Positions 4,090-64,000 of a DNA stretch of 64,000 nt are shown here, in pieces (position 1 is the first letter of the stretch; the number at the start of each line of letters is the position of its first letter). The stretch comes from Paraphysoderma sedebokerense (Eukaryota; Blastocladiomycota; Physodermatomycetes; Physodermatales; Physodermataceae), in contig JAHLJZ010000016.1 in assembly GCA_025602915.1 (NCBI GenBank), positions 351,394 to 415,393 of the forward strand, given 5' to 3'. A program made the position numbers and the translations under genes. The notes beneath the pieces are model-generated. The model had not been told where the DNA came from and made no database searches. It worked only from the letters and a program-made list of their open reading frames with translations.

Positions 4090-4179
4090 CTCTCGAGCGG
4101 GGAATTGAACCCCGGTCTCCCGCGTACTTTGACATCAGCCAATGACAGGCGGGGATACTCACCACTATACTACTCGAGA
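4090..4179 (-). tRNA. tRNA-Asp(GTC) with an 18-nt intron
   Basis: Read on the minus strand, the acceptor stem TCTCGAG pairs perfectly with CTCGAGA. A D-arm box A (TAGTATAGTGG) and a T-arm box B (GGTTCAATTCC) are present. The anticodon stem CCCGC/GCGGG encloses loop CTGTCAC with anticodon GTC. An 18-nt insertion (TTGGCTGATGTCAAAGTA) splits the loop one base 3' of the anticodon, the canonical 37/38 intron position. Without it the tRNA is 72 nt including the discriminator G. Confidence 0.93.
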
Positions 4180-24852: not shown

Positions 24853-27800
24853 TCAAAATGCTGATCCTCTATTGGCTAGAGCTAATCAAAAGAAATTGAA
24901 TCAGCCGATACCCGCAGAAAGCAAAGTAGGAAAAATTTAAAGTTACCATTTAATTCTGCGCTTGCAGAATTCCCTTGTGTCAATGAATGACTAGCCCCGC
25001 CTATCGTAGCACCACATTCAGGGCACGTAGATGTTTGCATGGCGCCTCCACATTCCCCGATCGCATACTACAAAAATGAATATTAACAAGGGTCCAAATT
25101 CGATTTACAGGAAACGAAGAGAAGCAACATGATGTTTAACTCACAGGATGGCCATTCGGACAACGATACCAATGAGTTCCGCCCCAACTTCCCAAGTCAT
25201 CTTTCATTGCGGAAACTATTTGCTTCAACTCCACTTCCGTGATTCCGTTTTGTACATTTTCTTCCAACTTCAGCAATTGAGTGATTACATTTTCAATGAT
25301 CAATACCAGATCACGGAAGTTTAGACCATTCTTCAATAGCTGTCGCAATTTCTCCACTTCTGCTAAACATCGATCCTTGATACTTTTAACTAACTCGGGC
25401 GTATTAATAGAACTGTCGATCATGGCTAATTTCCACTCAAATTCAAGTGATGAGAGTTTATATTGGGCGAGAACCACTGAAGTATCCATGTAAGAACGTT
25501 TATCAGTGGACTCATCCAATACGTCAAGAGCTTCAATCATGAATTCGAAAACTTTGTCGTAATTTCTACGGGTATAGGCACTATAGCAGCGAAGAAGAGT
25601 TTGTTTATACTTGTTTGAGCTACCAAGACTGGCTTCAACTTTATATGTGATATCCTTCAATAATAAAGTTTCTTTAAAACATATTTCAGCTTTTAGACGA
25701 AGACACTCATTTTCAAATCGCTTGTAAGGTTTAGGTATCGGTATATCAACGCTGACATCGGATTGATGACTTTTTATGGTGGCGACAGAAGATTCGTAGA
25801 CATGTTGATTAGGAGATCGACGAATGAATTTTAAAACATCATTGGTGGCTTTACGTGTTCGATCGAATCTCGAAATGACGTCCTGCCTGATGCCATCCAG
25901 CTGTGATTTTGGTATCTTGCATGAAGTTAAGTCTTTCTCGGACGGCGCTTCGCCTTTGGGAGTCCCAAACGTTTGTACGAGTCGAACGAGCTTCGCGGTG
26001 AAATCGTCATCCAACGAGACCGATAAATTTGCCATTTCTTCTTCCAATGCATGGATTTTGTCGCTCGACATCTTGATGAACTTCTTCTCGGCCACATCCA
26101 GTAGAGCTTTTTTTATCATTCTCCCATATCTTCGGACATTTTTAATGGGTGCCCGACATTCAGGGCATGTTGGGATGTTCGAAAAGTCTTCGGGGAGAGG
26201 TGGCAAAGTAGGGTCCCAGCCTGCAGAAGTTCCTTTTGTATAATAGTTTGACAATGATAGCAACCCGTCCATTGTCTCAGCAGTGAAGAAATGAGCACAG
26301 GGTAGAAAAATGATTGGCGTTTCGTCGGCATTGATTTCTGAATACTTCGAAAACATAATCATATCTACGATTTGATCTTTAATTTCGGCTGAGCAGTGAA
26401 CAGGGCATAGATTGCTTGGCGGGCATATTTCACCGCATATTCCGGGACAGCTGGAAAGGGATATTTAATCAGCTCCAAGAATATATGGATTGACATTCCT
26501 ATTTGAAAGAGTATACTTGCCGACAGCCACAATCCAACTGTCTTGAACAACGTTCGTCACACGGTAAACGAGTGCAGGGAGCTCCACAAGGCAATGGACA
26601 ACTTCCCCGATGCTCACATTCCCATGGACAAGGCTCTACGCATGCGGCACAAGGCTCTGAACACTTGTGTCGGCAGGAGGAATGTTCGCAAGCCATGATA
26701 GTGCACAACTGTTCGCATTTTGGGCATTCCTTCGTCTCAGGGTGACATGACGCAGCGCAGTTATGTTGGCAATAACTAAGAGCACGACCACATGGAATTT
26801 TACATGCTTTGTGAGTTGCTTCGAGGAATGGCGAATCAGTCGGCAATTGGATACCGTTCATTTCGTGTTGTTGAATCGTTAATTTTATACATTCTCCACA
26901 TTTGCTTGCGCAATTGTGACCGCATGTAAGTGCTTTTCCGCAGATTGCATCACAGAACACCTCTGATGGATCGTCAACGCACCGTACCAACCTTTCGTGA
27001 CCACACATAGGGATAATCTTCTGAACCACCTCCTTACATTTTAGCTTATTTTCGGTGACCTCATGACATAGCGGCTTTTGATAAATGTGGCCACATTCCA
27101 GTGTGATAGGGTCGACCACTTCGTCACACTTACCACAATCTTGATAACAAATCTTCCTACACGGGTGTTTGCAAGGGTGCAAGCGTGCGCAAGGCTTAAG
27201 ACAGCTGATAGCATTGTGGGAAGGATTGTAGGGATGGCATTTCAGAGAGCACTAATAGGAGCAGCATCAATCAAGTGATATCGCAATATTCGAAGAAATG
27301 GAGCTCACCGTATGTCCACACTTGGGCAATTTGACGTCACATTGAAGATTACAACCACCTGGATGAGGTTTCGATTAGCGTACTATCGAGACAAGAATAA
27401 GAACTTGCTTCCTAATCCTTACCATCTGGGGCGTGAATTTGAAATTCCTCTGGCGACTTAACTTCACGAATGGTTTCAGGGTGACGTTGACAAAATATTG
27501 AAAATGAATTCTGAATAGCTGATCTTCCTTGAAGTATATCACGAACTTCCTTCCACATAGTCGATTTGGAACTGAGGAGATTAGCATCTCCAAGTAAATA
27601 CATTCCATGTTTGGCACGGGAGAGTAGAACATTAATTCGATTAGATGTTGCGAGGAACCCAATTTTTTCACCCCCGTTTCTGACAAGAGAGATGAGTACG
27701 ACGGTGGATTCTTCGCCTATTCATGGAAACTTCAGTAAGTTAGCTGATTAACATCTGTAATCAGCCGTAACGTGTCACCAATTTCAAAAGCTTGATAATT

Positions 27801-30800
27801 AACATTACCCTGATAATTGTCAATGGTGGCAACTCTAATACAGCGGCTTAAGCCTTTGTTTTCGACAGTAAAAGTACTTGATGTCGTATTTGCACCCACT
27901 TTTTCAGCATCCTCCTTTTCATCTTCGCTATCTTCTAACTCATTCACTTGCTCGGCATCTCTTTCATCAATGAAGATCATGTACTCTTTTTTCAAGGCGT
28001 CTCGAATCTTAATTAGCTGACCAACATATCTACGAAAGCAGATCAGTAACAGAATAAGATTGAAAGAATTCTATTTCAACGGCATCAACTACTTACGGTG
28101 TTAATATAACCACGTCATCAGATTTGTAACCTTGATTCAAGACGTATTTAAGCAACCCAACTATCATTTTCACTTCAAAATCATTCGAATGACTTTTCAT
28201 GGATACAAAACGTGCTTTCTTCGATCCTTTGTCTTCGCGGTTCTGGTGATGAAAGAACACAACGTTGCCCTTGATGCCGGGAACGGATGGGTACTCAGTG
28301 GTATTGGGATTGTCGATCAAATTTGGATAAAGTGTGTTACGAACTAAGTCAGCTATTTCTGGACGCATACGTCGTTGAATTGAAAGGGTGTGCAGCGGAA
28401 ACTTGTATTCGGGCAGTTGAAGACGTTCGAATAGAGACATATCAAAGCGAAATCGCTTTCCTGATTGACTGTCACACGACAATTCGTACAATGCCACTCG
28501 AGGCCTTAGTTGAAGGTGATCACTAAAACAAAAATTATGATTAGCAGAAGAAAAATTCATGTAGGGAAACATAACAACAGCGGCAGAATGCCGGAAGTTA
28601 CCCAATCAGTACGACATGTTGAGTATCCGGGTGCAGACAGCTTAGTATATGTGCTTCCAATACTTCTCCAGCTTCTTCGCAGATGAGTATCCTTGGTCCA
28701 ACTTTTTCCAGTATATGACGAAATTTCGCGGCCCCGGTTGAAGTAATGCCAATAATATCTTGCTGCCGTAAAAATTCGATTTTCTGATGATCGTATATTT
28801 GGTTGATTTGGGTGATGAGCTGCCGAGCTTTTTCTGCCTCGTCAATAAACTCGTTACGGTATGTGTCAATAATTTTGCAAACCCAGTCATCATAAAGGCA
28901 CCGCCTTTCATGTTTGGATAAACTCCAAACATCAGTAATTGCCTGCAGCTCTTCAAGTGGACGCCTGGAATTTGGGATGATGATTGATTGTATCTGGGTT
29001 TCGATAGTGGGGTCGATATTTTCATTTTGTACAACCGTAGAATTTTCAACTTGCTCTTCCGCTAATACTGCAAACACATTTTCCGTTTTTCCTTTCTTCC
29101 TAATGGGCTCCTTTCTTGCTTTCTCGAGTCTCTTACGCATTGATATCTTCTCATCGATGTCCTTCCCCTGGATCCAACGATCGATAATAGAGTACTTTTT
29201 CTTGCCTTTTTTCGCGACTTCAAAACCGTCATCGCTGTCGTCAGAATTCGAGTCAAGGAACGAATCATGCTGATACGGGTTAACCAACAGTAAATGATCG
29301 AATAATTCTTGGTCGTCAATCTTTCGGTTTGCTATTTTGTCGCTTAAGTTTTTGATATCTCCCGCTATCCTTTCTAGACCCTTTCTGTACTCGGCCACTT
29401 GACTTATACCAGCCGGTTTGATACCCTGAAGACGATGATTGAGCTGAAATGGTCGTATTTTTTCATCGCTCGTTCGGCTTCCTATACGGACAAGCTTATT
29501 GATACCGAGCTCAAGTAAGTGAGTCAAGAACTGATCAAGAGCATGGTTGGTATAGCAAACGACGAGAATCGGACCGAGATCAATTTTGGATTTATTGCGT
29601 ACTAATGTTTCTACGATTTTCGTACCAACATAAGATTTACCAGTACCGGGAGGGCTGATTTCATCTAAGAATCAGTTTTAATTCGCCCAAAGCAAATGAA
29701 AATTAAATTCATACGTACCCTTGAATACAGCACAGTTCCGACGTCAATGCAGCCACCAAAGACTCACTTTGACCGTCGTCTAAACTGGATTTCTCTTTCA
29801 ACGTGGTAACGGCTCGTTTCCTTGAAGGTTCAGAATCCGGAAATAATTCTAAAGATTCACCATCCACCAACCAGGACAGATCATAACTGAACTCGGGGGC
29901 CCTGGCGAAAATTGGAGGATCGACTGCAACTTTAGATGTAGGTAAAGAGGTAGGTGCGATGTACTTGTGAAACGGTAGCGTCGGAGGTGAGATTTGTTGA
30001 AGAGACTCGAGAACGGGCCGATATGCTTCGAATAAAATTTTGTTTGCTTCAACAAGAAAAATCCGGTACTTTCTATTGGCAGAACATTGATCACGGAATA
30101 TTTGAAATACATCGACCGGTACTGCGTCTTCAACAAATGTAATGAGGATAGACGGCTGAGATTCTGCAGCTAGTTTCTTTATATCTCGATCTGCGATCAC
30201 TCCAAATATAAGTTTGACTTCGGTATCACAGTCTACATTAACTAACAAGCAGACTAATCCACCAAATTGAAGTCTCGAACTTCTCTCCCAAAATAATTCT
30301 CGCTCGCTAGGTTTCTTGATATTCTTCATAGTCGGTGGATTAAAAGATAGCCTTGCCACGACACCTTCCCCCTTTGTTACTTCAAATTTGACAATCTTAA
30401 CGTTTTCATACACAAGCAAATCAACATCTTGAGATGAAAACGGTTGAAGGGGGATTCCGTTTTGTGTGGGAACATGTAGATCTGTTTCTTGATTTCTGAA
30501 TCGTCCGTTAATAATATTTGTCTTTGAATCAGACATAAGTTTATTCACGAAGCTTGAAATACCATTGCGAAGTGGCGCGATCATGTCTTCACGCAACAAA
30601 CGGAAGTGTGTATCAAGAAGCCGACGAGGACCGTGTGGTAACCAATGACGGGCACGAAAGTTATTGAAGGGTACGGCTGGCGTTTTCCGACAGAGAATTT
30701 CATTATGAGTTGGAATAATCTTGATTTGAGTGTATTCAAAGGGATCATTATCGTGTCTGCCACCGGGTGGAGTCACATCTTGAGGGGGTGGATAATATTT

Positions 30801-32171
30801 GGTTTGAGTGGACGAGGACTTCGCAGATGTACTGCTAAATTGCAGCTCCGTGTTTGAATCCACAAGTATATCTTTCAAACGACTTAAGTTGCGATCAATG
30901 ATTTCAAGACCAAACGATTCACCATCTTTGTTCGAATCCTCTTTTTCCATGTTGAGTCGCCATTCCGGAAAATGTTCGTTCAACTGCACCACAGCGGAGA
31001 AAACAGTATCACTATACGCAGCTTCTTTTCGACGTGTGACGATTTCATAGAGAAGTGACAATAGAGGATAGAATATTTGGGTGAATGCGCCTGGCACAAA
31101 GATGAAAGTTTCGTTTTTATTGTTCACGAGAGAATCGGACGAAGCTTTTGGGTCGTCTATGGACGGTATAAAATTATCAATAACGGTAAAAGACGATAGC
31201 TTTGTATCTACGTACCGAGTGTTCCAGATTCTAATAGTTGAGTTAAACACTCAAGGGTATTTGGCAACCACTGCTCAATTTCAAGCCAGAATATATTCAA
31301 AATTTTGTTGATTTGTTCCTGTAATCCCGACTTACTCAATCGGAGAGTAAGAATGAGTAAAGGAACAAACAACTACGGAGAGATTAGAAGAAAACATAAA
31401 GAATGAACAATTGCAGTTGCGCCGATTTATCAAAAGTGTTATCAAAAATCATACCCGTTGGAAGGAATATTTTTCCTTCGCGTCTCCGGCATCAGTCTTA
31501 TATTGTATCCTGATTACTTTCCTCACAACTTCTAAACCGGATGTTTCACCGGTATGATCAGCCAATTTCCTCAATACAAGTTGTTCTTCCCCGCACATCG
31601 CATCAACCAAGCAACTCAGAATGAATTTTCTAGCTGTCCGCTGCGATGTAAAGACTTGGTCGATTTTATTCGGATTCAAGCTGAACCTCCAAAATCTCCT
31701 GAAGTTGTCGTCCTCTTTGACTGATTCCGGTATACTGATTAAGGCATCGACTCCACGGATTGCTAGGGCAGACGATGTCGCGGACGTCCGACTTTGTCGA
31801 ATACTTTGTTTCTTGATAGACGTTGAATCATCCAAAGAAACTGTCTCTGCGTCAGGAGCTGCATGAGAATACTTGCAATTCTCTGCGAATCTACACCACT
31901 CATTTGTAGAAAAGAATTGACAAACTTTTTGCCGTTTAGAGCTAGAAGGAGGTGACGGGGAATCTGGTGGATTGTCGTGACTGAATTTGCACTTGTCGGC
32001 GAATTTACAGTGTCCATTTTTCATGAAGAAATTACAAACACTTTGTTCATTACGACTGGAAGAACTCGATGCAGACGTAGAGCCAGAACTTTGCGGAGTT
32101 TCGTGACTATATTTGCATTTGGCGCCATATTTGCAGTTTCCCTTTAGGAAATCTCGACACGGTTTCTGCAT
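24853..32171 (-). CDS. ZNFX1/Hrr1-type RNA helicase with CCCH, NFX1 and RZ zinc fingers
   Basis: A multi-exon gene of 7.3 kb, about 2,000 residues. The N-terminus carries three CCCH fingers: CRDFLKGNCKYGAKCKYSH, CNFFMKNGHCKFADKCKFSH and CQFFSTNEWCRFAENCKYSH. A ZNFX1-like N-terminal region follows, then an SF1 helicase: Walker A GPPGTGKSYVG, VVCYTNHALDQF, Walker B-like ILICEEAGE, VVLIGDHLQLRP, QRRMRPEIADL, and the last motifs VATIDNYQGEES and LLSRAKHGMYLLGD. The C-terminal part has a Cys/His NFX1-type array (CGHNCASKCGEC, CQHNCAASCHPETKECPKC) and an RZ-type finger (WYRCPNGHPYAIGECGGAMQ, then CPECGATIGG). The last exons extend to TGA at 24853. Relatives act in small-RNA silencing (Hrr1, ZNFX-1) or antiviral RNA sensing (human ZNFX1). 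The start at 32171 is the ATG just before the first finger. Confidence 0.93.
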
Positions 32172-33060
32172 AATGCTAAATCCGGAACCTTCAACCAAAA
32201 GAAAGAAGCACAAATTGGAAAGAAGAATAATTCTGCTCAGGCTATGATATCCGTGTGATACCTCGCTTTCTTGTGCTGGTCGAATTATCAAAATGAGACA
32301 TTGATTGAGATATCGGACAGGGCGCGCGGTGTCCACAGTGTGTCCGGATTTTGTCCTATTTTGTCCACCAAATGTCTCCTGAAAACCACAATAGTTTTGG
32401 CGTCGGCCATGATACGTTTCGGAATTTTCGAATCAACCTGAATGTTGGATTCGGTCGGCTGTGTGTTCTGGAAACCTTCTGGCTTCTAAGTCCAGAAGGA
32501 AAGCAGAATAGAGGCAAAACCAGGATTGTCAGATGTGGGCTTATAGGTCCCATACTAATCAATTGTAAGCTTGAATATTCCATCAAAGATGAAAATATAA
32601 TACATGTGATTCCCTGCGTCCCCGAAATTGTATGCCACCAAAGGAAAACGAATGATTAAAAATTAAACCGACGTTTAGCATATTCCATTTGTAGTTTGCA
32701 GAAATCATTCAATTTTAGGAACTAGCGAAATTTCGGATCTGCGGAATAACGGAAAGAGATAGGTTCATATTCTTTCCGAGCTTGGACATAATTCGGACAA
32801 TAATAGAGCAGAATGCAGAAATACAGATTGCACCCAGATACATACAAAAATCAACCAAATTTTAATCATTTTACGTTACAAACAGACTAGTGATGGCTTA
32901 ACCCCAATAAGAAAGCAAACGAGAAGGAAGAATACAATGCGTCGGAAAAGTAAGGAGTTTACCCAAGTCATAACACAAAGAGAAAGAAAAAAGAATATAA
33001 CAATCACTTGATAAACCAAGAGTAAATCATTTAATATTTGTTTTCGACTTTAATCCAACT
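32172..33060. other. intergenic
   Basis: Upstream of the helicase and downstream of PRP19. A 102-codon plus-strand frame at 32351 has no ATG-supported or domain evidence. Nothing else seen. Confidence 0.4.
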
Positions 33061-50329: not shown

Positions 50330-51133
50330 TTATCTTGTTTCTCTGCTTGCCTTTGTTGTTGAAATAGTCGTTGATTCCTCCTTGCCGGCAGCAACGATAG
50401 CGACAAATTTACTCGATAAGAATAAACTGATTAGTTCACACAAAATGGCGATATTGTTAAACTCAAAAATATCGTTTCGGACGTTCAAAGTCAAAAACGA
50501 AATGGCCATTGTAAGTCCAGTAATGACAACCAGCGCAAAGTAAATCGCGAAGATCAGCACGCATAATTTGATTTTTGATGTTTTCCCACTTGGATTGTTA
50601 ACCCCTGACGGGACACTCCCAGAATTAACTTTCATCGTATCCAGCAACAATTTAACGATCATTCCGGTCAATCCAGCATTGATTATGGTGTGGTAGATTG
50701 AAACGGACGCGTATAACTGAAGAAATGATGGGATAAGAGCTGGATTGGCGAGGATGCCGACATACCATAAGGCAATGGCGATCGCCCAAAGTAAATATTC
50801 AATTCCCACGAGAATATACATGTACATGTGATATTGATGAATACTGCGGGAGAGAAGCTTATAACGCATACCGACATAAGTTGTCACAGTGGGAATTGTA
50901 AGCATTGTGAACGAACCAACAGCATTGTACGCCCCAGCATCGATAATACTCGAAGAGTTTACGGATATGCCTCCAAGAAGCATTGATATTCCAAAGAATG
51001 CGAGCGCAGCCATGTAGACAATTTTATAGCTTGAGAGAGATTGAGCGCTATCTGCCAGCATGGCAATTAACAACCCGAAGCAGACACCAGAGATGATGGC
51101 AGAAGACTTCCCAATGCGTTCGAATGGGTCCAT
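50330..51133 (-). CDS. intronless seven-TM protein, array copy 1
   Basis: A single 267-residue frame with no introns. Seven hydrophobic segments: IISGVCFGLLIAMLADSAQ, YKIVYMAALAFFGISMLL, FTMLTIPTVTTYVGMRYKLL, ILVGIEYLLWAIAIALWYVG, SIYHTIINAGLTGMIVKLLL, KLCVLIFAIYFALVVITGLT and IAILCELISLFLSSKFVAIV. The basic GMRYKLLSRSIH after TM3 sits where a cytoplasmic loop is expected. There is no signal peptide, and the C-terminus is short and Ser/Thr-rich. I recognise no named family. Receptor or membrane scaffold are both possible. It is the most downstream of four tandem paralogues. Confidence 0.8.
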   Translation of the reverse strand: MDPFERIGKSSAIISGVCFGLLIAMLADSAQSLSSYKIVYMAALAFFGISMLLGGISVNSSSIIDAGAYNAVGSFTMLTIPTVTTYVGMRYKLLSRSIHQYHMYMYILVGIEYLLWAIAIALWYVGILANPALIPSFLQLYASVSIYHTIINAGLTGMIVKLLLDTMKVNSGSVPSGVNNPSGKTSKIKLCVLIFAIYFALVVITGLTMAISFLTLNVRNDIFEFNNIAILCELISLFLSSKFVAIVAAGKEESTTISTTKASRETR

Positions 51134-52165
51134 TTTGCTGCAAATAGTTGGTTTAGAGATTTTGGGAAGATGAATGAGCTAATTAGCACTGAAATCGACA
51201 ACTGAGAACAAAGTATTTGGAGATATTGAAATTTGAAGAATGAAGGACAATTGGAGAATTTTCCCTCAGGGGTAAGATAGTGTGTCGAAACGAAGAGTAG
51301 GGGATAACAGAGAAAAGGGGCTCCATCTATATACTGCTCAATGTGCCGAAAGGTCTAGATGTGTAGCACCTGTAGCACGAGACCGATGACAATGAAATAA
51401 AAATGAAAGCCGTCATTGAGTGAGCCGAAACGGACTCAATGACTTCTCATCTTTGTGCCCTCTTGAGCCCTATTTATCCGTCACAACGGGTGTATCGTGA
51501 TGACGACATCCTTTATCTGTGCTGTTAATGCTTTTATGATGACAAAGAAAAAAACAACGCCCTTCAGCTGGTGGCAAATTTTCTTGAGAATTCCAGAAGT
51601 CTAGAACCTCGGAACGGGAAATTGGAACCGGTTTTCTCGGAATGCTGAAGAGCTCGCCTGACTTGCACGAAATTAAAACACCGTTTCTAATAACAACAAA
51701 TTAGTGAATTACCCCCACTGTTTTTCTTCCACAGAGGAGTGAAAATTGTCGAAATCGTTCATGCAAGTTTAGCGGTCAAATGGTGGCAAACTATATACTG
51801 AATTATACAGCCTGCTATATAGGCCGTTAAATAAATTGCCAAGTCATAACTTATCACCATCTTACCTTACAATATGTCCAGAAATCCGAGCCGGTCTGCT
51901 GATATATGAAATAAGTATAGCTCTAAAACTCGACCATTAATCTGGAAGTTCGAATCCAAACTATTAAAGGAAATATTCTTCATCAGATGTATTCCCATTT
52001 AGTTCTCTCTTTGCTGGTGCTGAGACATCATTACCACACTGATGACGGACATTCATTGTGAGACGTTGCTTAAAATCTGCATTTTCGATATGACCACATC
52101 AGTGGTCAACTAAAGCAACTACATCAAATAAAATTACATGGTAAAAAATACAAGACTTATACATT
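51134..52165. promoter_or_regulatory. upstream region of array copy 1
   Basis: A TATA-like CTATATAC at 51327-51334 lies about 195 nt before the ATG, and a TCAGGGGTA element at 51266-51274. Beyond 51500 the sequence is non-coding; no gene seen. Confidence 0.4.
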
Positions 52166-52969
52166 TTATTTATGCTCTCTACTAATTGTCTTTGTATTTG
52201 AAACCGTCGTTGATTCCTCCTTGCCAGTCGCGACGATGGCGACAAATTTACTTGATAAGAATAAACTTATGAGCTCACATACGATAGCAATGTTGTTGAA
52301 GAGAAAAACATCATTTTGGACATTCAGTGTCAAGAATGAAATTGCCATCATCAGACCAGTGACTATGACTAGCGCAAAATAAATACCGAAGATGAGCACA
52401 CATAATTTGATTCGGTTCGAACCGTGCCCATTGCCACTTGATGACACGCCTCCAGGAGTAGCTTTCATTGTATCCAAAAGCAACTTAACAATCATTCCGG
52501 TTAATGCAGCATTGATGATAGTATGGTAGATTGAAATTGACGCGTATAGCTGCGAAAATGAGAGGAAGAGAGCAGGATTCACCAGGGTCGCGACATACCA
52601 AATGACAATTGCGATCCCCCAAAGGAAATATTCTATGCCGACGAGAGCGTACATATATGTATGATACCTATGGACACTACGGGAGAGAAGTTTATAGCGC
52701 ATTCCGACGTAAGTCGTGATGGTTGGAAGTGTAAGCATTGTGAACGAACCAACAGCATTGTACGCCCCAGCATCGATAATACTCGAAGAGTTTACGGATA
52801 TGCCTCCAAATAGCATTGAGATTCCAAAAAATGTCAACGCAGCCATATATACGATTTTATAGCTCGACAGAGATTGAGAGCTATCTGCCAGCATGGCGAT
52901 TAACAACCCGAAGCAGACGCCAGAAATGATGGCAGAAGCCTTGCCAATGCGTTCGAATGACATGTCCAT
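52166..52969 (-). CDS. intronless seven-TM protein, array copy 2
   Basis: 267 residues, no introns, very close to copy 1 in TM1-TM3 (MADSSQSLSSYKIVYMAALT type N-half) and less close in the loops and C-terminus. It shares the NSSSIIDAGAYNAVGSFTML block at nucleotide level with copy 1 (79 identical nt). Differences cluster in the TM4-TM5 loop (VATLVNPALFLSFSQLYA) and the TM5-TM6 loop (ATPGGVSSSGNGHGSNRIK). The start MDMSFERIGK is the conserved family start. Function unknown. Confidence 0.8.
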   Translation of the reverse strand: MDMSFERIGKASAIISGVCFGLLIAMLADSSQSLSSYKIVYMAALTFFGISMLFGGISVNSSSIIDAGAYNAVGSFTMLTLPTITTYVGMRYKLLSRSVHRYHTYMYALVGIEYFLWGIAIVIWYVATLVNPALFLSFSQLYASISIYHTIINAALTGMIVKLLLDTMKATPGGVSSSGNGHGSNRIKLCVLIFGIYFALVIVTGLMMAISFLTLNVQNDVFLFNNIAIVCELISLFLSSKFVAIVATGKEESTTVSNTKTISREHK

Positions 52970-53629
52970 TTTTAGCAGATACGATGGCTTCTAGTGAAAG
53001 TTTAAACTCATGCGTATTTATCTTGTAGGACTGAAGGTAGTATTTATACAGATCTATACCCCGATTCGTTAAACGATTTGCACAGACCTGCCCAGACTTC
53101 AATGAATCAGCGATTTCGATTGAATCCAGGCCTCAGGGGTACGAAAGTGTTTGTGGAAAGCGAAGATGTATCGGCAATACAGTGGCTAGGGAGCAGGGGT
53201 ATTATCTGTGCTAGCTTTTATATTTGTTCATGTGGCAGATTTCTGCCGTGCTGTGATGATGAATAGGATGTGTCGCGCCTGACACGGATGACATTGGTTG
53301 CCTGTGCCATTGTCAGGGCGGAAGTGGAAATGCTCCGTGAGTGACTCGACACGGACTCGATAAATCTTCATTTTGACGGGCTTGAATGGAACTCTCCGGA
53401 CAACATAACGTTTTCTCCGACCTGTTACTAATGGCAGGACAAAAGATATATGTCCGCTCTTTAGATGTGGCAAATTGCCTTCTGAACTGTGGTAGGCGAA
53501 ATTAAAATGGAAAGTAGAACTGGTTGTCTGCCTGCCCTCGCCACAAATGGTGAAAAACTAATATATGAGAATCAAGGATTAATTATAATTATAGTCATTC
53601 AAGTTATGGAGTCGACAAAAGTCGTCGAC
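52970..53629. promoter_or_regulatory. upstream region of array copy 2
   Basis: GTATAAATAC on the minus strand (53040-53049) is a good TATA box 71 nt before the ATG. TCAGGGGTA at 53133-53141 and GCAGGGGTATT at 53193-53203 lie further up. No other gene. Confidence 0.5.
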
Positions 53630-53940
53630 TCAGTTGGGCGACCCGTTGCCACTTTCGCAACAAATTGACTCGACAAACATTCTATAACCACATTTACTTC
53701 CAATTTCAATGCCGGTGGACACATATATCTCAGATTCAACCTCGAGGCTCAAAAATGAAATTACCATGGTCAGGCCCCCAATTATAACCGACGCAAAGTA
53801 AATGGCGAAAATCAGAATATCGATTTTGCTGCATCGGACCACTAGCTACTGGGGCAACTCGTAGAAGCACAGAATGAAGCCCCCATTTTTTCCATTAATA
53901 ATTTGGACCAGAGCGGAGTAATGAAGCCTTTCTATGCAAA
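53630..53940 (-). pseudogene. relic of a fifth array copy
   Basis: A truncated minus-strand frame matches TM6-TM7 of the array genes: SKIDILIFAIYFASVIIGGL then TMVISFLSLEVESEIYVS, where intact copies have KLCILIFAVYFALVIVTGLT and FNVQTDIFVFNN. After this the frame shifts, so the expected CELISLFLSSKFVA end appears only as broken pieces in other frames. A KLLMEKM-like remnant of the TM5 end is seen near 53900. TM1-TM4 are gone. Confidence 0.7.
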
Positions 53941-54250
53941 AGTCGTTGGTCTTCATTAGAAATCTAGGCTGAAAAGTTACACTGGTGTATTCGAAAACAC
54001 TGTCCATATCCTAGCAATGGCAAAATCAGATGGCTCATAAACTTAAACTGATATCTCCGCTGGTGAGACATGAACTGGACTTTACATTTCCCTAATTTCG
54101 TGCATAATTTACTGTGTATGGAACATTGAGTGGGTTAATATTTAAAATATGTATACAAGAATGATACATTACAGGAGTTGATACATCTTTGAAGTTAGCA
54201 ATGTTAAACTTATGTTATACGAATAATTTATAATTACAACGGCGTTTTCT
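53941..54250. other. intergenic
   Basis: Non-coding gap between the relic and array copy 3. Nothing recognised. Confidence 0.4.
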
Positions 54251-55042
54251 CTACTTGGATCTCGCTGATGCCAATACGGTAGCTGAATCCTGATGACCAG
54301 CCGCTGCCACGATAGCAACAAACTTGCTCGACAAGAACAAACTAATCAATTCACTCATAATAGCGATGTTGTTAAACACAAATATATCAGTTTGGACGTT
54401 AAAAGTCAAAAATGAAATTGTCATTGTGAGCCCAGTCACAATCACCAAGGCGAAATAAACTGCGAAAATGAGAATGCACATTTTTATCTTTGACGCGTTG
54501 GTGTTGTTATTGTGGCCACCCGTCCCCGCAGACGAATTTTTCATTGTTCCCAAAAGCAGTTTAATTATTGTTCCGGTCAACACGGTGTTAATTATCGTAT
54601 GGTAGATTGATATGGCGGCGTACAATCGTAAGAAGGGAGGGACGAGCGTGGCATCGACCATGTTACCTACATACCAAATGACAATAGCGACAACCCACAG
54701 AAGATATTCAATACCGATGAGAGCGTACAAGTAATTATGATACGAGTGTATGGTGCGAGAAAGAAGTTTGTATCGCATGCCGCCGTAAGCCGTGACAGTT
54801 GGAAGTGTCAACATCGTGAACAAACCAACCGCAATGTACAAATCCGGGGCAGTCACACTGCTAGAATTGACAGATATCCCAGCCAGAAGCATACCCGTAC
54901 CGAAAATGGCGACGGAAAGCATGTAGACAATTTTGTAGCTGGTGAGAGACTGGGCACTGTCAGCTAACATAGCAATTAATAGACCATAACAAATTCCGGA
55001 AATGATGGAAGAAGATTTTCCGTAGCGTTCAAACGTGTCCAT
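54251..55042 (-). CDS. intronless seven-TM protein, array copy 3
   Basis: 263 residues, no introns. It forms a closer pair with copy 4: both start MDTFERYGKSSSII and share NSSSVTAPDLYIAVGLFTML, VGIEYL-type TM4 and FNVQTDIFVFNNIAIMSELI. The TM5-TM6 loop (NSSAGTGGHNNNTNASK) is Asn/Gly-rich and differs in length from copy 4. The basic MRYKLLSRTIH after TM3 is kept. Function unknown. Confidence 0.8.
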   Translation of the reverse strand: MDTFERYGKSSSIISGICYGLLIAMLADSAQSLTSYKIVYMLSVAIFGTGMLLAGISVNSSSVTAPDLYIAVGLFTMLTLPTVTAYGGMRYKLLSRTIHSYHNYLYALIGIEYLLWVVAIVIWYVGNMVDATLVPPFLRLYAAISIYHTIINTVLTGTIIKLLLGTMKNSSAGTGGHNNNTNASKIKMCILIFAVYFALVIVTGLTMTISFLTFNVQTDIFVFNNIAIMSELISLFLSSKFVAIVAAAGHQDSATVLASARSK

Positions 55043-55747
55043 AGTATTCTCTTAGTCGTCGCGAAGGCGATATTACTTTAATTTCGGTTGCTTAGAGGTA
55101 TATAGCAGTTCAACGGCTCTCTTTCTTTCGAGGAGATGTTTTTGAGAATATGAAAAGGAGGGGTGAGATGAGGTCTGATACTGTCTTATACAACGGATTT
55201 TGCCCCTAAGTTGAAATTACAATAACCCATGTGACGCACTGTTTGCTGTCCAAATATTCTCATATCGCCCCTGGCATCCAGGCATTTATTGCATGTCAAC
55301 TATCAAGAGCTCGGTAACGTGATACGTTAGGGGTATTATTGAATCAGTTATAACGGACACAGGACGGACAATTTTGTATAATGTCATTTGAGTTTTGATG
55401 CAGCCAGTGTGAGATAGCACTTTTTCGCAGTGTAATACTAATAATCAAATATATGTGTTCAACATCGCCTTATCGTTCCTTAAGCAAATTTTGCTCAATT
55501 GCGTCATGTATGTGTAAGTAGTATCGTCGGGACACGACGAGAACGCACATCTCTTCTCGCCCAGATAAATCAGGGGTATTCGGATGCCCCTATTTATATT
55601 GCACCGCTGAGCCAAAGAATTCGAGGACAAGACGTGACTCATGGTGGTCACCGGAACTGATTTTGTAGAGTCAATGGAATTTGTTAAGAATAGTTTCTAG
55701 TGTGGCTGCACGCGAGAATCAACTTTACTGTTGTCGGATATTCAAGG
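55043..55747. promoter_or_regulatory. upstream region of array copy 3
   Basis: A TATA-like GTATATAG (55098-55105) lies about 56 nt before the ATG. AGGGGTATT occurs at 55329-55337, and a 20-nt element (ATCAGGGGTATTCGGATGCC) at 55569-55588 recurs exactly upstream of copy 4. Confidence 0.5.
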
Positions 55748-55930
55748 ATATATAAGCCGGGAATTGACTTTACACAACTCAGCATTTCAGTATTGCGTTA
55801 GAATATATAGTGCGCTTTCAGGCTTATTAACATGCTAGTATTTCAATGTATATATATAATGGTGTTCCCGTTAATAATAGAATCATTCAATCACTTCAAC
55901 ACCACTGTGCTATTGGACCTTAAATCTTAG
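55748..55930 (+). other. orphan promoter with 32-codon ORF
   Basis: GATATATAAGCC near 55748 is a good plus-strand TATA box. An ATG at 55832 opens a 32-residue frame starting MLVFQCIYIMVFPLIIESFN, partly hydrophobic, closing at 55930. It may be a small peptide gene, a non-coding transcript or the first exon of something lost. No family. Confidence 0.25.
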
Positions 55931-56579
55931 CAGAATTGAACATTTGTCCTTCTCGTCCCTCATCGTTCCTCCGCCATCCTGTCTATGACTTATCTTTGAA
56001 AAGGTGATACTTGAAAACCCTGGTTTTAACCTGCGGTTAAGAATTCAAACATATTCAAGAAATTTTGGGAACTTCGCAATTCGCATCCGACTCAAGGCCG
56101 CAAGTTTCAACTGTGATTACAACGCATGTGACTTTTGTTATCCTGCATGTGGTAAAATTGTTAAGGAACGAAAAAAAAAACTTTTTTCTGATTTTACGCT
56201 GCATGCATCTTTCGGACTTTACAGACTGAGCTACAATTAAGGATATTTGTTCAGCTGTATCTATACTAAAGAATTATTCAAGTAAAATAAACTAGAATTC
56301 ACTCATAACGCCAGTGTGGACATATAAGCCTTTTTCAAGGACTTAGATATCTGCGATGTTATCCTCAGTTAAATAAAAAGTATATCTAATTGTATTATAA
56401 TGACATTCACATAAACAGCACTGCGAAAATTGGTTGCTACAAATAGAATTTCGGATATTTCAACCCACATTTTTGATACAGTTAAAGACGTACAGCGAGT
56501 TATCTTGCATCATGAATTATAAATACATATACTTAGGCTCGTATCATTGTTATAGACACTTCGCTATATAATACATGCA
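55931..56579. other. intergenic
   Basis: AT-rich. A 78-codon plus-strand frame at 56004 has no domain. No gene recognised. Confidence 0.4.
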
Positions 56580-57377
56580 CTAACGGCTCGTTTCTGACTT
56601 AAATTTCGGAGTCAGAACGGACGTCGATTCATGAGTACCAGCAGCTGCTACAACGGCAACAAATTTACTAGATAAAAATAAACTAATCAATTCACTCATA
56701 ATGGCGATGTTGTTAAACACGAAGATCTCAGTTTGGACATTGAATGTCAAGAATGAAATTGTCATAGTAAGCCCGGTAACGATCACTAAGGCGAAATAAA
56801 CTGCGAAAATGAGAATGCACAATTTGATTTTTGAAGCGTTCGAATTGTGGCCACCTGTTGCCCCTGATGTACCATTCATAGTTGCCAAAAGCAGCTTGAT
56901 AATCATTCCGGTCAGCACAGTGTTAATTATAGTATGGTAGATTGATATGGCGGCGTACAGTCGTAAGAAAGGAGGAATGAGTGTGGCATCGACCATGTTA
57001 CCTGCGTACCAAATGATAATCGCGACAACCCACATAAGATATTCAATACCGATGAGAGCGTACAAGTAATTATGATACGAATGAATGCTGCGAGAAAGAA
57101 GTTTGTATCGCATGCCAACATAAGCCGTGACAGTTGGAAGCGTCAACATTGTGAACAAACCAACCGCAATGTACAAATCCGGCGCAGTAACACTGCTAGA
57201 ATTGACAGATATCCCAGCCAAAAGCATACCAGTGCCGAACAGGGCAACTGCACTCATGTAGACAATTTTGTAGCTTGTCAAGGATTGAGCGCTATCCGCC
57301 ATTATAGCAATTATCAGGCCATAGCAAATACCGGCAATAATAGAGGAAGATTTTCCGTAGCGTTCAAATGTGTCCAT
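56580..57377 (-). CDS. intronless seven-TM protein, array copy 4
   Basis: 265 residues from MDTFERYGKSSSIIAGICYG, the start conserved with copy 3. The frame is open 35 codons further up, but that extension has no match in the other copies. It has seven TM segments, the GMRYKLLSRSIHSYHNYLYA loop, a NGTSGATGGHNSNASK loop between TM5 and TM6, and a Ser/Thr-rich tail. No introns. The pair 3/4 and the pair 1/2 suggest at least two rounds of tandem duplication. Function unknown. Confidence 0.8.
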   Translation of the reverse strand: MDTFERYGKSSSIIAGICYGLIIAIMADSAQSLTSYKIVYMSAVALFGTGMLLAGISVNSSSVTAPDLYIAVGLFTMLTLPTVTAYVGMRYKLLSRSIHSYHNYLYALIGIEYLMWVVAIIIWYAGNMVDATLIPPFLRLYAAISIYHTIINTVLTGMIIKLLLATMNGTSGATGGHNSNASKIKLCILIFAVYFALVIVTGLTMTISFLTFNVQTEIFVFNNIAIMSELISLFLSSKFVAVVAAAGTHESTSVLTPKFKSETSR

Positions 57378-58150
57378 AATTCCCTCTTCGTTGTCGTTAT
57401 AAACTAGATAAATTTCAAATTTTTCGCGAACTAACGTGTTGTAAGCTTTGAAGAGGTACAAACGCATCATAGGATGGGGCAATGCCTTTTATCAGTAACG
57501 CAGTGCACTCACTTTCAAATGTACAATAAGCCATATGATGGGCCGATTATATATACAGGAATGTTCCTTCCTTCTGTTACTCCTCCGCATTTCCTTTTGC
57601 CCCTCCTGATAACGTGACTTCACCTGACTTCACCAACGGCAGATACAACGTGTCCCATGTCTGGGCCATTGTGATTCCTGTCAAACGGACAATTGTAATA
57701 TCCGTAACATTTGACTTCGAGGTATCCCCGTCATCTTCTAATTAATAGAATAGTAAAAGGCAACGATAATTAAGGCGGAGCTGTTGAGTCAATAAGTTGC
57801 AACTATATTGCAACGCCTATTTTTGAAACAGTTTTGCGCCATAAGGAATCTGCAAATTGGGGTTTCCCTGCGGACTTTGAGCAGCTCACATGATGACATC
57901 AGGGGTATTCGGATGCCACCGTTGTTTGCATCTTGGCCCGCCCGCCTCAAGCAACCAAACTCATGTGATGAATTCACGAATGTCTGACAACAACTGACCA
58001 CTGCGTCCAAGAACAACGGGTAAGAACAATTTCGAAAAACGAATGGATGATGTGATAAAAGATTTCTCTTGAATAATAATGACATAGCAGCGGTGGATTA
58101 TTTGCAGACAGGACTGCCGCCGCTTGTAAGTTTTCTAATTTTAGAAAAGA
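57378..58150. promoter_or_regulatory. upstream region of array copy 4
   Basis: TATATATA at 57548-57555 is about 170 nt before the ATG. The 20-nt element shared with copy 3 is at 57898-57917, at nearly the same distance from the start codon (521 versus 527 nt). Confidence 0.5.
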
Positions 58151-58746: not shown

Positions 58747-60775
58747 TTATTGGTCTACCATGAAATCCATTTCATCTAGTTCTTTCGCGGATGAGCGGTC
58801 GTAATGAGATCCTTGTAGTGACTTTAAAGATACAAAAATAAAAATTAAATCCAGGAAACCTCAAATGATTTATTCTTCTCTTTCCCTGACCCCAGAAAAT
58901 TAAATAGACACCAACCTTACTCAAAAATTCCTTTGATGATGCTACTGAAGCATCTTTATTTCGTACGTAATCATTTAGTTCCATTAACAGTTTCATGGAA
59001 CTATTCAATTTTTCTTTCGCTTCATCGTCATCATATTTTTCAGGATCGTCGAAGAATTGAACCATCAAGTCTTTTTCGTGAGAGATATTTGCACTGATCT
59101 TGTTCTGAGCGATAATTTTTAAAAGCAGCGACTCTGTGGACTGACAAACTGTGTCCGTTGAGATGGCTGGACTACTTTGAGACCCAGAAGAAAGACCGGC
59201 GTGGGTAGCAATATCATGAACCGAGAGTGTGAGGTACGTGTGTGTCAGGTTAATGATCTTATACTCGTTAAGACTGGAAATTAATTGCTTGGCTAAACCC
59301 AGATTATTATCAGATTGGAGCTGGGAAGTGTATTTCGTAATCGCGGACTGTAGACGACCGGAGTTGTGAGACTCGTAGGCAGACTGTAGGTCGAGGTAAC
59401 AAAGGCAGGCATTCTTTAACACACGGCCAACAGCTGGGGAAGTCTGCTTCGGCAACTGAGGTACCTGTTTTTCGGTTGGGTAAAACATCATCAGTGAAAA
59501 ATTCCAGTGTAAGCAAAATGCCAAACAAGAATATTAACCTTGCCGTCGACCAAAAGTGAGACCAGAATGTACTTCTTATAACTTTCAACCTGAATCTGGC
59601 TACATACTTGAGCCGGCGCTGAAATAGCCTAGATGGAAAGGTCAGACCTGAAAGGGATTAAACTGTTACCATCTCTGCACTCACCAGCATGAACATTTCT
59701 TGTGCTTTCACAAAGTCTTTCAAGCCGGTATAAATCATACCCCCGTAATACATGTACGTGAGAAAATCCTGAATTTTGACGTCCATGGTCTAATGTTGTA
59801 TACGACGTCAGATCGCGCACTCCTACACTTCCTTGTGCGGAATTACCGAACTAACTTACTTGAGAGTCAATTTCAGTTATAAAATTCTCTAAAATTGATA
59901 GTGGGGCCTTAAATACCCTTGCTAGGAGACATTGCTGTCGGATAAATGCAAAGTTACCACTAATTCATCACCAAAAGAATCAATCTTTAAACCGACAAGT
60001 TACCTTCATCGTTATGGAATGTAAACTTGACAGATGATTTGGAGATAGACTGAAGCGAGTCGTGGCTATTATTAGAGGTTTGATGGTAATGATGGGCTAG
60101 ATAAATGAAGTTATTTCGCATTAGACTGCGATAGCCTCGGTGTGACTTTGATTACGATAGCGTCAACACATACTCGTTGCAGAACATAACCGAACCGACA
60201 AATCGTATTGCCTATTAACGTGACTAATAAATAATACATTGTATCAGCTAATTTGTACTTCAGTCTGCCTGAAAACACAAGGGATGGCTACTTTTCGCGG
60301 GGGCCAGTCGTATATGATCAGGGTTACAAGTCTGAACGAATGTCGTTAAAAGAGTGTACATCTTTTGGAGCTGTTGAAATTGCTCAGGGGTTTTTGGCTG
60401 GTTTGACAGTTTTGCAAAACATCGGATCGGTCTAAGCACAATTTGTTTGTATAAATTTCCTCAAATCAGTTACCGAAAGCACGACATTCAGGTACGTTGA
60501 GTTCATATACGTCCGTCCAACACAACTTAGAAAGCAGATAAAACATGAGCCAAGAATAAAGCATACAGGAAGTGTGCTAATGGAAGAGTATTCTTTGCGC
60601 AATCTGCCATTAAAATGTCGAGGGGATCCGCCCCATTGGAAGTAGACTCTTGAGCAAAGACAGAATCCGGAGTTGCTTTCAACGTGGGCAGAAGAGTCTC
60701 CTTGAGGAACTCGATATCCCCAGGGCTGTTCTGAATGGTGGATAATAGGGCATCGACGCTTGTGGATACGGTCAT
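58747..60775 (-). CDS. CSN3: COP9 signalosome subunit 3
   Basis: About eight exons. Exon 1 starts MTVSTSVDALLSTIQNSPGD. Later exons carry EQFQQLQKMYTLLTTFVQTC, QCLLARVFKAPLSILENFIT, KIQDFLTYMYYGGMIYTGLK and SQIQVESYKKYILVSLLVDG. The PCI part is KVPQLPKQTSPAVGRVLKNA, DNNLGLAKQLISSLNEYKII and NLTHTYLTLSVHDIATHAGL, then KDLMVQFFDDPEKYDDDEAK. The C-terminal exon ends SLQGSHYDRSSAKELDEMDF and stops at 58747. Order and content match CSN3, a scaffold of the complex that removes NEDD8 from cullins. The exon near 60050-60110 is provisional. Confidence 0.9.
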
Positions 60776-61342: not shown

Positions 61343-62375
61343 CTATATTCTAACTAGTCCCGGCTGAATGGTCGACTTCGAGGGAGATTGATGCATTTTT
61401 GACGCATTACTTATTCGAGTTTTGACAATACCATCGAATATGATACATATATGCAAGAAAACCGAGCTTAAGAACGAGTTGATGGCGATGCCGAGAGAGT
61501 GAGGTATCACGCTCAGGGAAAGAACTGAAACTATGAAATTGATGAGAGTGAAGGCAACCAACATGGCGACAATGTACTTGTGAGAGTTGAATAGATTTGC
61601 CACGGATTTCAGAGTCGTTTTAGCTGCCATTTCTGACTGCGTTGTACGGGTAGCTTGGTTGTTCCCTAAATTTCTGCGTTGTCAGACGAAGCTATCATTT
61701 CGGTGGACTTATAGAACTAACATAAAAATACACACCTTTGTCTGATTCCAGAGAACTATTGAAATTTGAATTATTTGTTTGCGTTAACATTTCCCGGTTC
61801 TTCACGAAAATAATGATCTTGTAGACGTATATCAATTGCACCGCGCATACAAATACCGCATAAATCACATTGCCTGACAGATTCATGATATAAGATGCTA
61901 TTCCTGCGGGAGAGTACAAAGCGTATATTGGCACCGCTAATTGTGCCGCAGAAATATACGAAAAGCATATCGACGTCAACGTTAAAACAATTTTGGCAGC
62001 GGCAACTGAACCTGCAAACAATAGAGCGACTTTTTTCGCGTAATGTCGGAGTAGTAAAATATTGAGTTTATGAGTGAGAAGTACTACCATGGCAACTAGG
62101 ACAAAGAAGCATGAAGCAAAGAGAAATCCTATAGTTTGTAATTGAAATGTTCCTAGAACGGCCTTCCGTGCGATAACTACAATTCCAAAAATGGCATGAA
62201 GGATGAGAGCTACAGCTGCTATGAGTTCGGCCCACGGGATTTTTGTAAATGTGGAGGTAGATAACTTAATTTTTCGAATAGTTATTGCAGTCAGGAAGAC
62301 ATTGTAAGCGATACATAAGCCAAAAAAGACGAGTGTTGCAATATTTCGGTTGAGTACGGCTGAGTAATAGTTCAT
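61343..62375 (-). CDS. two-exon seven-TM protein, unrelated to the array
   Basis: Starts MNYYSAVLNRNIATLVFFGL. TM segments: ATLVFFGLCIAYNVFLTAIT, ELIAAVALILHAIFGIVVIA, LFASCFFVLVAMVVLLTHKL, LFAGSVAAAKIVLTLTSICF, GNVIYAVFVCAVQLIYVYKI, then after one intron YIVAMLVAFTLINFIVSVLS and INSFLSSVFLHICIIFDGIV. The join runs SLESDK to GNNQATRTTQSEMAAK, using the second of two possible acceptors because the first gives an immediate stop. It ends SPSKSTIQPGLVRI. About 320 residues. No named family recognised; the layout is receptor-like. Confidence 0.75.
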
Positions 62376-63614
62376 TGTAAACACTAAAAAATAAAATATC
62401 TAGTTGGAAGACTCGTGCGGAAAAAGAAAACGGCGAAGGAGCAGCTTTTTGAATGAAAGTGCGGAATTGCATTTTATAAATTTAATTAGACACTGAGCCA
62501 GCGGCAAAACTGTCGGTGTTCGAGACCGGGGAGAATCTCGATATCGACCGTTCTCGAATCTTAAGGCCCTTCACTAATTGTTGATATTTGAATATGGCCG
62601 CTAGTTCATCAGAATAATCGAATGATGGAGTGATGACGTATAGATATTGGATGACGGACCGACGGACATTGCTTCTTTCATCTCTACATGTTGTTGCGCA
62701 GCGTGTCTTCAAAATTTGAGTTGCAAAATTTGACCTCAATCTTCCTCAAAAAATTTAGGGAAAATCAAAACACAACACAAATTGTGCCTGAACTCGCACT
62801 AATCGAAGATGACACTAATGTCGTACAGTATAATACAGAACTACGAGCTAAGGATGATAAGATACTAAACAATTGTAATTCACAGTAAGTGGAGCAACTA
62901 AGATAACCAGCTTCTTTTTCAGTTGCCTGGGCCTTACGTGAGCCTTCTCAATTATCGAAATTTGAACTGAATTAGAGAGTGAAAATTGCGGGAAAACTAA
63001 TTCTTCCGGTCTTCTCTAGTCTAGAACTCAAATTTCGAGAGTTGCTTCTCCATGGGAATTGTTAGAATCGTTACTTTCTTGCGTCTTGGAAAATCTTGAC
63101 AAATCTGCATAGCATGAGAGGAAGGATAATTCCTAAACATTTATATTGAGATAATTGAGGCAGACCGCACTTACCTCAGCATTCAGCTACTTGTGTCGTA
63201 TGCTTTTCATTTAAAGTTCACCAAGGTGGAGGATGCGACTAACGCACGGGTTAGTTTACAACTGAGACTGGCGTGTAAGCCATACATCAGACTAATACTA
63301 GTCTCATTCTTTACCAAGCACTTATACCAGAGATTTCAAGATGATTTAATTTGAACGGAAATATTAACAGTATTTTGCATTGATTTTTGAAACCTTTTAG
63401 TTACATCATACGAACTAATGTAGCAACATCATTTCATTCATCGCCGGATGCTATGTTACCAATTTCAGTTATTATAACACATACATTAAAACGTATCTCA
63501 AGATAATTGAATGTACAAATTGCTAAACTAGCATAAACACAATCTTAGCCGAGAATCATCATATAAGCTCATTTGCGTTCAAATGTATGATAACATCAAT
63601 ATCATCATTTATTG
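62376..63614. other. intergenic with a possible minus-strand exon
   Basis: A minus-strand frame at 62482-62739 ends DELAAIFKYQQLVKGLKIRE then RSISRFSPVSNTDSFAAGSV. It looks protein-like and could be the last exon of an unseen gene, but I find no upstream exons. The rest shows nothing. Confidence 0.3.
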
Positions 63615-64000
63615 TGCTATTAATGCTTAATCAGGTATTCGTATTACGATTCGTTTGTATACCAAACTTCATTAACTATTCTGAATCCAATCTTGCATAA
63701 AATACGAAAAATAGGAACCAATCACAATTTCCCAACGCATGACCAAATATCTATTACTCGTCCTTCAATAACCTGTATTGAGAGTGACACCATCTAAAGC
63801 AGTTCATCTATATTCTAACTACTCCCGGCTGCATGGTCATGTTCGAGGGAGATAGATGCATTTTTGACGCATTACTTATTCGAGTTTTAACAATACCATC
63901 GAATATGATACATATATGCAAGAAAACCGAGCTTAAGAACGAGTGACAATACCATCGAATATGATACATATATGCAAGAAAACCGAGCTTAAGAACGAGT
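63615..64000 (-). pseudogene. partial, diverged duplicate of the two-exon seven-TM gene
   Basis: Matches 61140-61480 along its length. The coding end is intact to the stop at 63808 (HLSPSNMTMQPGVVRI versus HQSPSKSTIQPGLVRI in the first copy). Further up, a 56-bp segment is duplicated in tandem up to the window edge; 56 is not a multiple of three, so the frame is shifted. The rest of the gene lies outside the window, so whether it is dead cannot be settled. Confidence 0.6.
63889..64000. repeat. 56-bp tandem duplication at the window edge
   Basis: Unit 1 is 63889-63944 and unit 2 is 63945-64000, differing only at the second base of the unit (A/G). The single-copy counterpart is about 61424-61479. 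More units may lie beyond the window. Confidence 0.85.

What the first reader, a model, noticed from the sequence alone, without database searches (positions are those of the whole stretch)
50330..57377. Tandem array of intronless seven-TM genes of no recognised family
Four minus-strand paralogues of 263-267 residues, each with seven hydrophobic segments and a conserved GMRYKLLSR loop after TM3, lie in 7 kb. Almost every other gene in the window is split by several introns, yet none of these is. That suggests an intron-free founder (retrocopy or transfer) followed by local expansion. Array expansion of a 7-TM family fits environment sensing or mating recognition, which is inference.
Basis: partly seen in the sequence, partly recalled or inferred. 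Interest (0 to 1): 0.85.

Follow-up and report, generated by a model that had tools for sequence, protein, structure and literature searches.

The report
Tandem array of orphan 7-TM genes
A eukaryote, possibly a fungus, carries a cluster of four intact copies and one decayed copy of an undescribed gene for a membrane protein that seems to cross the membrane seven times and may be a small cell-surface sensor; orphan proteins of this sort are common and its function is unproven.

Summary
Four minus-strand ORFs of 263-267 aa (63-88% identical) lie in 7 kb, need no coding intron and are under purifying selection (dN/dS 0.11-0.17 within pairs). Seven helices are likely but predicted only. No convincing hit in Pfam, NCBIfam, PHROGs or PDB sequences; no eukaryote set could be searched. 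Bacterial or viral transfer is not supported; a retrocopy founder is untestable here. Charge bias favours N-terminus outside. The two gene pairs differ more in outer loops 1 and 2 than in inner loops 1 and 2 (grouped after looking). One of two low-confidence models draws mostly GPCRs as top, non-significant, fold matches; the other does not. Best reading: a lineage-specific, possibly co-regulated tandem family of receptor-like proteins; GPCR function is plausible, not shown. A 2025 survey left 141,666 seven-helix fungal proteins unclassified, so an orphan 7-TM family is ordinary.

The parts
50330..51133 (-). Gene A, 267 aa, predicted 7-TM, coding part intronless
52166..52969 (-). Gene B, 267 aa, closest to A (81%)
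53602..53827 (-). Decayed fifth copy: TM6, TM7 and tail region only, in two reading frames, no 5' part found
   Evidence: tblastn E 4.2e-10 to 1.4e-9 with the four queries; 67-nt repeat copy at 53749-53815; three frames
54251..55042 (-). Gene C, 263 aa
56580..57377 (-). Gene D, 265 aa from the conserved ATG, closest to C (87-88%); the frame is open back to a TTG at 57482
51266..51274 (-). TACCCCTGA upstream of A
53133..53141 (-). TACCCCTGA upstream of B
55570..55578 (-). TACCCCTGA upstream of C, inside a 20-nt block identical to one upstream of D
57899..57907 (-). TACCCCTGA upstream of D, inside a 20-nt block identical to one upstream of C
61343..62375 (-). Gene F: separate multi-TM gene (7-TM by my reading; 8 hydropathy peaks), 320 aa if a 70-nt intron (61666-61735), placed by eye, is removed; no sequence relation to A-D detected
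63586..64000 (-). Partial second copy of F's last exon and 3' flank, running to the window's end
   Evidence: blastn 85.7% over 370 nt and 100% over 57 nt

Best explanation
A lineage-specific family of small 7-TM receptor-like proteins grew by tandem DNA duplication, with decay of at least one copy. Each protein most likely sits with its N-terminus outside and its C-terminus inside (predicted). The conserved inner loops 1 and 2, above all GMRYKLLSR after TM3, would contact a common intracellular partner, most simply a heterotrimeric G protein (inference), while outer loops 1 and 2, which separate the A/B pair from the C/D pair, would tune what is sensed (inference). A shared upstream 9-mer with a CCCCT core would switch the genes on together (inference from position and rarity). 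Shown here: the array, coding constraint, the decayed copy and the shared 9-mer. Predicted: the topology. Inferred: receptor function, G-protein coupling and co-regulation.
For: Array and constraint. Decayed copy. K+R in loops 37 inside against 9 outside, D+E 11 against 19, summed over four proteins with a layout set by eye. Sites fixed between A/B and C/D: outer loops 1 and 2, 11 of 22; inner loops 1 and 2, 1 of 21; Fisher p 0.0015, loops chosen after looking. N-S-S sequon in outer loop 1 in 4 of 4. TACCCCTGA: 4 matches in 64 kb, expected 0.30, 0 of 100 shuffles with 4; the only 9-mer shared by the four 700-nt upstream stretches, while 0.2% of 2000 random quadruples share any 9-mer. Fold search of model 2: 15 of the top 20 rows are GPCR entries by title, best of them E 0.23, probability 0.82; none significant.
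Against: Both models have mean pLDDT about 47. No match has E at or under 0.001 in either search. In one search the highest probability and TM-score among the leading rows (0.95, 0.48) belong to a designed helical filament, not a GPCR. Model 1 has only 2 GPCR entries in its top 20. No GPCR profile hit. The test of outer against inner halves, TM halves included, is not significant (50 of 122 against 32 of 101 variable, p 0.17). Inner loop 3 and the C-tail, cytoplasmic in this layout, are the most variable parts (21 of 24 and 16 of 20), and C and D carry sequons in inner loop 3 too. No acid before RY, no NPxxY, no loop cysteines.
Confidence: 0.45

Rival explanations
1. A stress-induced multi-TM membrane protein that is not a receptor, for example a lipid exporter or membrane-stabilising protein of the general kind of RTA1/Rsb1 or Hsp30 (names recalled).
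For: The shared upstream CCCCT core resembles the yeast stress response element (the element is recalled, and named in abstract starts listed). Size and short loops fit. Inner loop 3 and C-tail are poorly conserved.
Against: No RTA1 or other convincing Pfam hit. Fold search of model 2 leans to GPCRs, without significance. I did not look for a transporter-like pattern of charged residues.
Confidence: 0.35
2. The founder was a retrocopy or a transferred gene, hence the lack of introns (not exclusive with the other readings).
For: No intron in four coding parts against 9 predicted introns in 1,275 nt of the flanking acyl-CoA dehydrogenase; at that density the Poisson chance of none in 804 nt is 0.003, for one founder.
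Against: No prokaryotic or viral relative confirmed; GC3 near that of one host gene and no A-run; the nearby gene F has a single predicted intron in 963 coding nt, so low intron content may be usual for such genes here.
Confidence: 0.15
3. A 7-TM ligand-gated ion channel of the insect odorant/gustatory receptor superfamily.
For: Relatives of that superfamily are reported in unicellular eukaryotes (PMC9998090, abstract start in a listing; PMC7746228, abstract start in a listing); one gustatory receptor entry stands at rank 27.
Against: Predicted N-out layout is opposite to theirs (recalled); that match has E 2.4.
Confidence: 0.05

Closest known systems
Unclassified fungal seven-helix clusters, including the DUF6534 candidates (PMC12842992)
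   Same: Seven-helix proteins outside the known GPCR classes; some of the ten largest clusters mostly lack a Pfam domain
   Different: No DUF6534 hit here; whether this family is one of the 1,969 clusters could not be checked
Rhodopsin-like and cAMP-receptor-like GPCRs of early-diverging fungi (PMC3251606)
   Same: Predicted N-out 7-TM layout; R-Y at the end of TM3 (GMRY)
   Different: No D/E before RY, no NxY at the TM3 end, no NPxxY or NSxxY in TM7, no loop cysteines, no profile hit
Class VI fungal GPCRs with RGS domain (PMC13308352)
   Same: 7-TM layout
   Different: The array proteins end about 20 residues after TM7 and have no RGS domain. A separate RGS-domain ORF lies in this window at 5929-6276
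RTA1-like fungal 7-TM proteins (recalled)
   Same: Fungal, 7-TM, similar size (recalled)
   Different: No Pfam hit

Membership tests
Class A (rhodopsin-like) GPCR | 7tm_1 profile match | tested here: not met
   hmmscan of four proteins (three without their first Met) against Pfam-A at E up to 10, where HMMER's filters drop most matches above about 0.1: only SAT, E 0.088, in one protein
Class A (rhodopsin-like) GPCR | D/ERY at the TM3 end | tested here: not met
   Invariant G-M-R-Y: R and Y present, acid absent
Class A (rhodopsin-like) GPCR | NPxxY in TM7 | tested here: not met
   TM7 reads ELISLFLSSKFVA in 4 of 4
Class A (rhodopsin-like) GPCR | TM3-ECL2 disulfide cysteines | tested here: not met
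   Two or three cysteines per protein, all in predicted TM segments 1, 6 and 7
Class A (rhodopsin-like) GPCR | Seven TM helices, N-terminus outside | tested here: inconclusive
   Charge bias favours N-out; hydropathy gives 5 to 8 peaks by copy and cut-off
GPCR in the functional sense | Couples to a heterotrimeric G protein | not testable with these tools
   Needs a binding or signalling assay
GPCR in the structural sense | GPCR fold | tested here: inconclusive
   Best GPCR entry E 0.23, TM-score 0.40, on a model of pLDDT 46.9; model 1 shows no such lean
cAMP-receptor-like (Dicty_CAR) | Profile match and NxY at the TM3 end | tested here: not met
   No Pfam hit; MRY instead; NxY as given in PMC3251606 (passages)
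Class VI RGS GPCR | RGS domain after the 7 TM | tested here: not met
   About 20 residues after TM7 and no Pfam hit
RTA1-like, PAQR, PQ-loop, Git3, DUF6534 | Pfam profile match | tested here: not met
   None reported for four proteins at E up to 10, with the filter caveat above
Insect-type 7-TM ion channels | N-terminus inside (recalled) | tested here: inconclusive
   Charge bias points the other way, as a prediction only
Same family as neighbour gene F | Sequence homology | tested here: not met
   hhalign probability 0.1; score 13.3, reached or exceeded by 36 of 60 class-preserving shuffles

The most novel reading that the evidence does not exclude
The array is a new, lineage-restricted class of chemosensory GPCR: proteins that share an inner face with a degenerate GMRY motif, have diversified in outer loops 1 and 2, and are switched on together through one upstream element, with a second, unrelated multi-TM tandem family (F) beside it, making the locus a small receptor cluster.
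Probability: 0.2. Interest if true: 0.65.

Novelty: new member of a known kind. Interest (0 to 1): 0.33.

Why it matters
If the family is a receptor class, the array gives a compact, testable set of candidates for environmental or partner sensing. For aquatic chytrid fungi, for example, a 2025 paper states that the mechanisms of chemotaxis are poorly understood (PMC12115818, passages); that this organism is a chytrid is not established. As an orphan 7-TM family alone it is one of very many.

Tried and rejected
Bacterial or viral origin: two pattern scans each of viral contigs (32 and 146 pattern matches, none confirmed by tblastn) and genome contigs (5 and 210, none confirmed), and tblastn of gene A against phages (no match). 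Each scan uses two short peptide patterns, so only close relatives are excluded. CSC1-like ERD4 as a relative: profile search E 0.034 over profile positions 86-216, not taken as significant. Other weak hits, each in a single protein and treated as chance: SAT in Pfam (E 0.088), three PHROGs (best E 0.39), one PADLOC family (E 0.033), interleukin-12 alpha in PDB sequences (E 1.7). Weak tblastn matches elsewhere in the window, at 32371-32610 (gene C, E 0.019) and 6235-6698 (genes C and D, E 0.093 to 0.30), were treated as chance and not followed. Homology of F to the array: not supported. A selenocysteine tRNA at 4090-4179: rejected; the sequence reads better as an intron-bearing tRNA-Asp (my reading and of the Rfam tRNA alignment). 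Papers: seven searches showed no description of this family in their listings; that is no proof that none is in print.
Full report
WHAT IS THERE. Four ORFs lie on the minus strand at 50330-51133 (A), 52166-52969 (B), 54251-55042 (C) and 56580-57377 (D), encoding 267, 267, 263 and 265 residues from a conserved start. A and B are 81% identical, C and D 87-88%, and members of different pairs 63-68%. Differences at codon positions 1, 2 and 3 are 37, 25 and 98 for A/B and 25, 14 and 86 for C/D; dN/dS by three methods is 0.13-0.17 and 0.11-0.13; between pairs synonymous sites are near or at saturation, and several estimates failed. The array is therefore old and maintained, not an assembly artefact of near-identical copies.

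A FIFTH COPY. tblastn with each of the four proteins finds a fragment at 53602-53827, between B and C, matching TM6, TM7 and part of the tail in two frames (E 4.2e-10 to 1.4e-9; with C the second piece alone has E 4.7). Its TM6 part is also a copy of repeat D4. Nothing matching the first two thirds was found. The family has gained and lost copies.

INTRONS. No coding intron is needed in A-D; in-frame stops lie 48, 24, 12 and 114 nt upstream of the four starts. D has two in-frame ATGs further upstream; the repeat shared with the other copies begins at the conserved ATG. Introns in the 5' leaders cannot be excluded. In the flanking acyl-CoA dehydrogenase I place nine introns by eye in 1,275 coding nt; the spliced product matches the three acyl-CoA dehydrogenase domains. 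At that density a gene of 804 nt would lack introns with probability 0.003, as a single founder event. But gene F (62375-61343) has one predicted intron in 963 coding nt, so lineage-specific genes may be intron-poor here. I did not model the other genes of the window.

SHARED UPSTREAM ELEMENT. The upstream stretches are largely diverged apart from short blocks (A/B: 36 nt at 83% and a few weaker ones; C/D: 20 nt identical). TACCCCTGA occurs four times in the 64 kb, both strands searched, once in the 700 nt upstream of each gene and always in the gene's orientation, its CCCCT core at -139, -170, -534 and -528. Shuffles predict 0.30 matches and 0 of 100 reach four. It is the only 9-mer common to the four 700-nt stretches; 0.2% of 2000 random quadruples from positions 1-49000 share any 9-mer. 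Common descent explains part of this, and the random quadruples are not related to each other. Gene F lacks it. CCCCT is the core of the yeast stress response element (recalled; papers in the listing); whether this organism uses it so is unknown.

TOPOLOGY. Hydropathy gives 7, 6, 8 and 8 peaks for A, B, C and D at one cut-off and 5, 6, 6 and 7 at a stricter one. Model 2 of AlphaFold has seven helices; model 1 has eight pieces, TM3 being broken in two; mean pLDDT is 46.9 and 46.6. With a seven-helix layout that I set by eye, K+R in loops is 37 inside and 9 outside over the four proteins with the N-terminus outside, and acids are 11 and 19. An N-S-S sequon stands in outer loop 1 in 4 of 4; C and D also have sequons in inner loop 3, which this layout puts in the cytoplasm.

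WHERE THE COPIES DIFFER. Sites fixed between A/B and C/D: outer loop 1, 6 of 11; outer loop 2, 5 of 11; outer loop 3, 2 of 12; N-terminus, 1 of 10; inner loop 1, 1 of 6; inner loop 2, 0 of 15; inner loop 3, 2 of 24; C-tail, 1 of 20. Outer loops 1 and 2 against inner loops 1 and 2: p 0.0015; all outer parts against inner loops 1 and 2: p 0.025. These groupings were made after seeing the alignment. The broader test of outer against inner halves is not significant (p 0.17); it leaves out inner loop 3 and the C-tail, which are the most variable parts (21 of 24 and 16 of 20). Relaxed constraint explains the pattern as well as selection does.

RELATIVES. Pfam-A gives only a weak SAT match in one of four proteins, NCBIfam nothing, PHROGs three weak hits in single members, PADLOC one. 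PDB sequences give nothing significant; best CSC1-like ERD4, E 0.034. No relative was confirmed in viral contigs or prokaryote genomes or phages. No eukaryote collection was available, nor the window's own genome.

FOLD. Foldseek of model 1: 145 matches at E up to 10, none at 0.001, 2 GPCR entries in the first 20 rows. Foldseek of model 2: 180 matches, none at 0.001; 15 of the first 20 rows are GPCR entries by title, led by MRGPRX1 (E 0.23, probability 0.82) and TAS2R14 (E 0.34, 0.80); row 4, a designed helical filament, has a higher probability (0.95) and TM-score (0.48) than these. GPCRs dominate solved 7-TM structures (recalled) and no control model was run, so this is a lean, not a result.

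NEIGHBOUR F. A multi-TM protein of 320 aa, 8 hydropathy peaks at a lenient cut-off, seven helices by my reading, with its predicted intron in the TM5-TM6 loop; no Pfam hit at E up to 1 and no detectable relation to A-D. A partial copy of its last exon and 3' flank at 63586-64000 runs to the window's edge, so F is probably part of a second tandem family.

COMPARISON WITH WHAT IS KNOWN. PMC12842992 (abstract, sections 3.2 and 3.5, passages) classifies 28,294 GPCRs of 1,357 fungal species and leaves 141,666 further seven-helix proteins in 1,969 clusters; of the ten largest, some mostly lack a Pfam domain. PMC3251606 (passages) gives ERY and NPXXX for fungal rhodopsin-like and N(S)XY and NS(A)XXY for cAMP-receptor-like proteins; the array has MRY and neither TM7 motif. 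PMC13308352 (passages) says that most fungal GPCRs are orphans. So an orphan 7-TM family is of a known kind.

VERDICT. The receptor reading is the best of several, at 0.45. Transfer is unsupported and retrocopy untested. The organism is a eukaryote with spliceosomal introns; that it is an early-diverging fungus is my impression, not a result.

Noticed in passing
5926-8011 (-): ORF pieces with hydrophobic stretches (by eye) followed by an RGS domain (Pfam RGS, E 8.3e-07, on 5929-6276): possibly an intron-split 7-TM-RGS (class VI-like) gene; no single piece reached three strong TM peaks, so the 7 TM is not shown.
   Followed up: partly
19472-22345 (+): Response regulator receiver match (E 4e-06, below Pfam's cut-off) and class I cyclic nucleotide phosphodiesterase (E 1.7e-49) in nearby ORFs on one strand; if one gene, a RegA-like layout (recalled).
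   Followed up: partly
61343-62375 and 63586-64000 (-): Second, unrelated multi-TM gene with one predicted intron and a partial duplicate that repeats a 57-nt piece.
   Followed up: yes
4090-4179 (-): ARAGORN calls tRNA-SeC, but the sequence reads as tRNA-Asp with an intron after the anticodon.
   Followed up: partly
2936-3295 (+) and 8974-9345 (-): Two ORFs that look alike by eye and hold a VHEFAHT zinc-metalloprotease-like motif; no Pfam hit for the first at E up to 0.1, three sub-threshold ones for the second (best E 0.019).
   Followed up: no
25136-31250 (-): ORFs with a ZNFX1 domain (E 1.2e-12) and an RZ-type finger match below Pfam's cut-off, perhaps one NFX1-type gene.
   Followed up: no
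58772-59524 (-): PCI-domain ORF (E 3e-06) flanking the array on its other side; perhaps COP9 signalosome subunit 3 (my reading).
   Followed up: no
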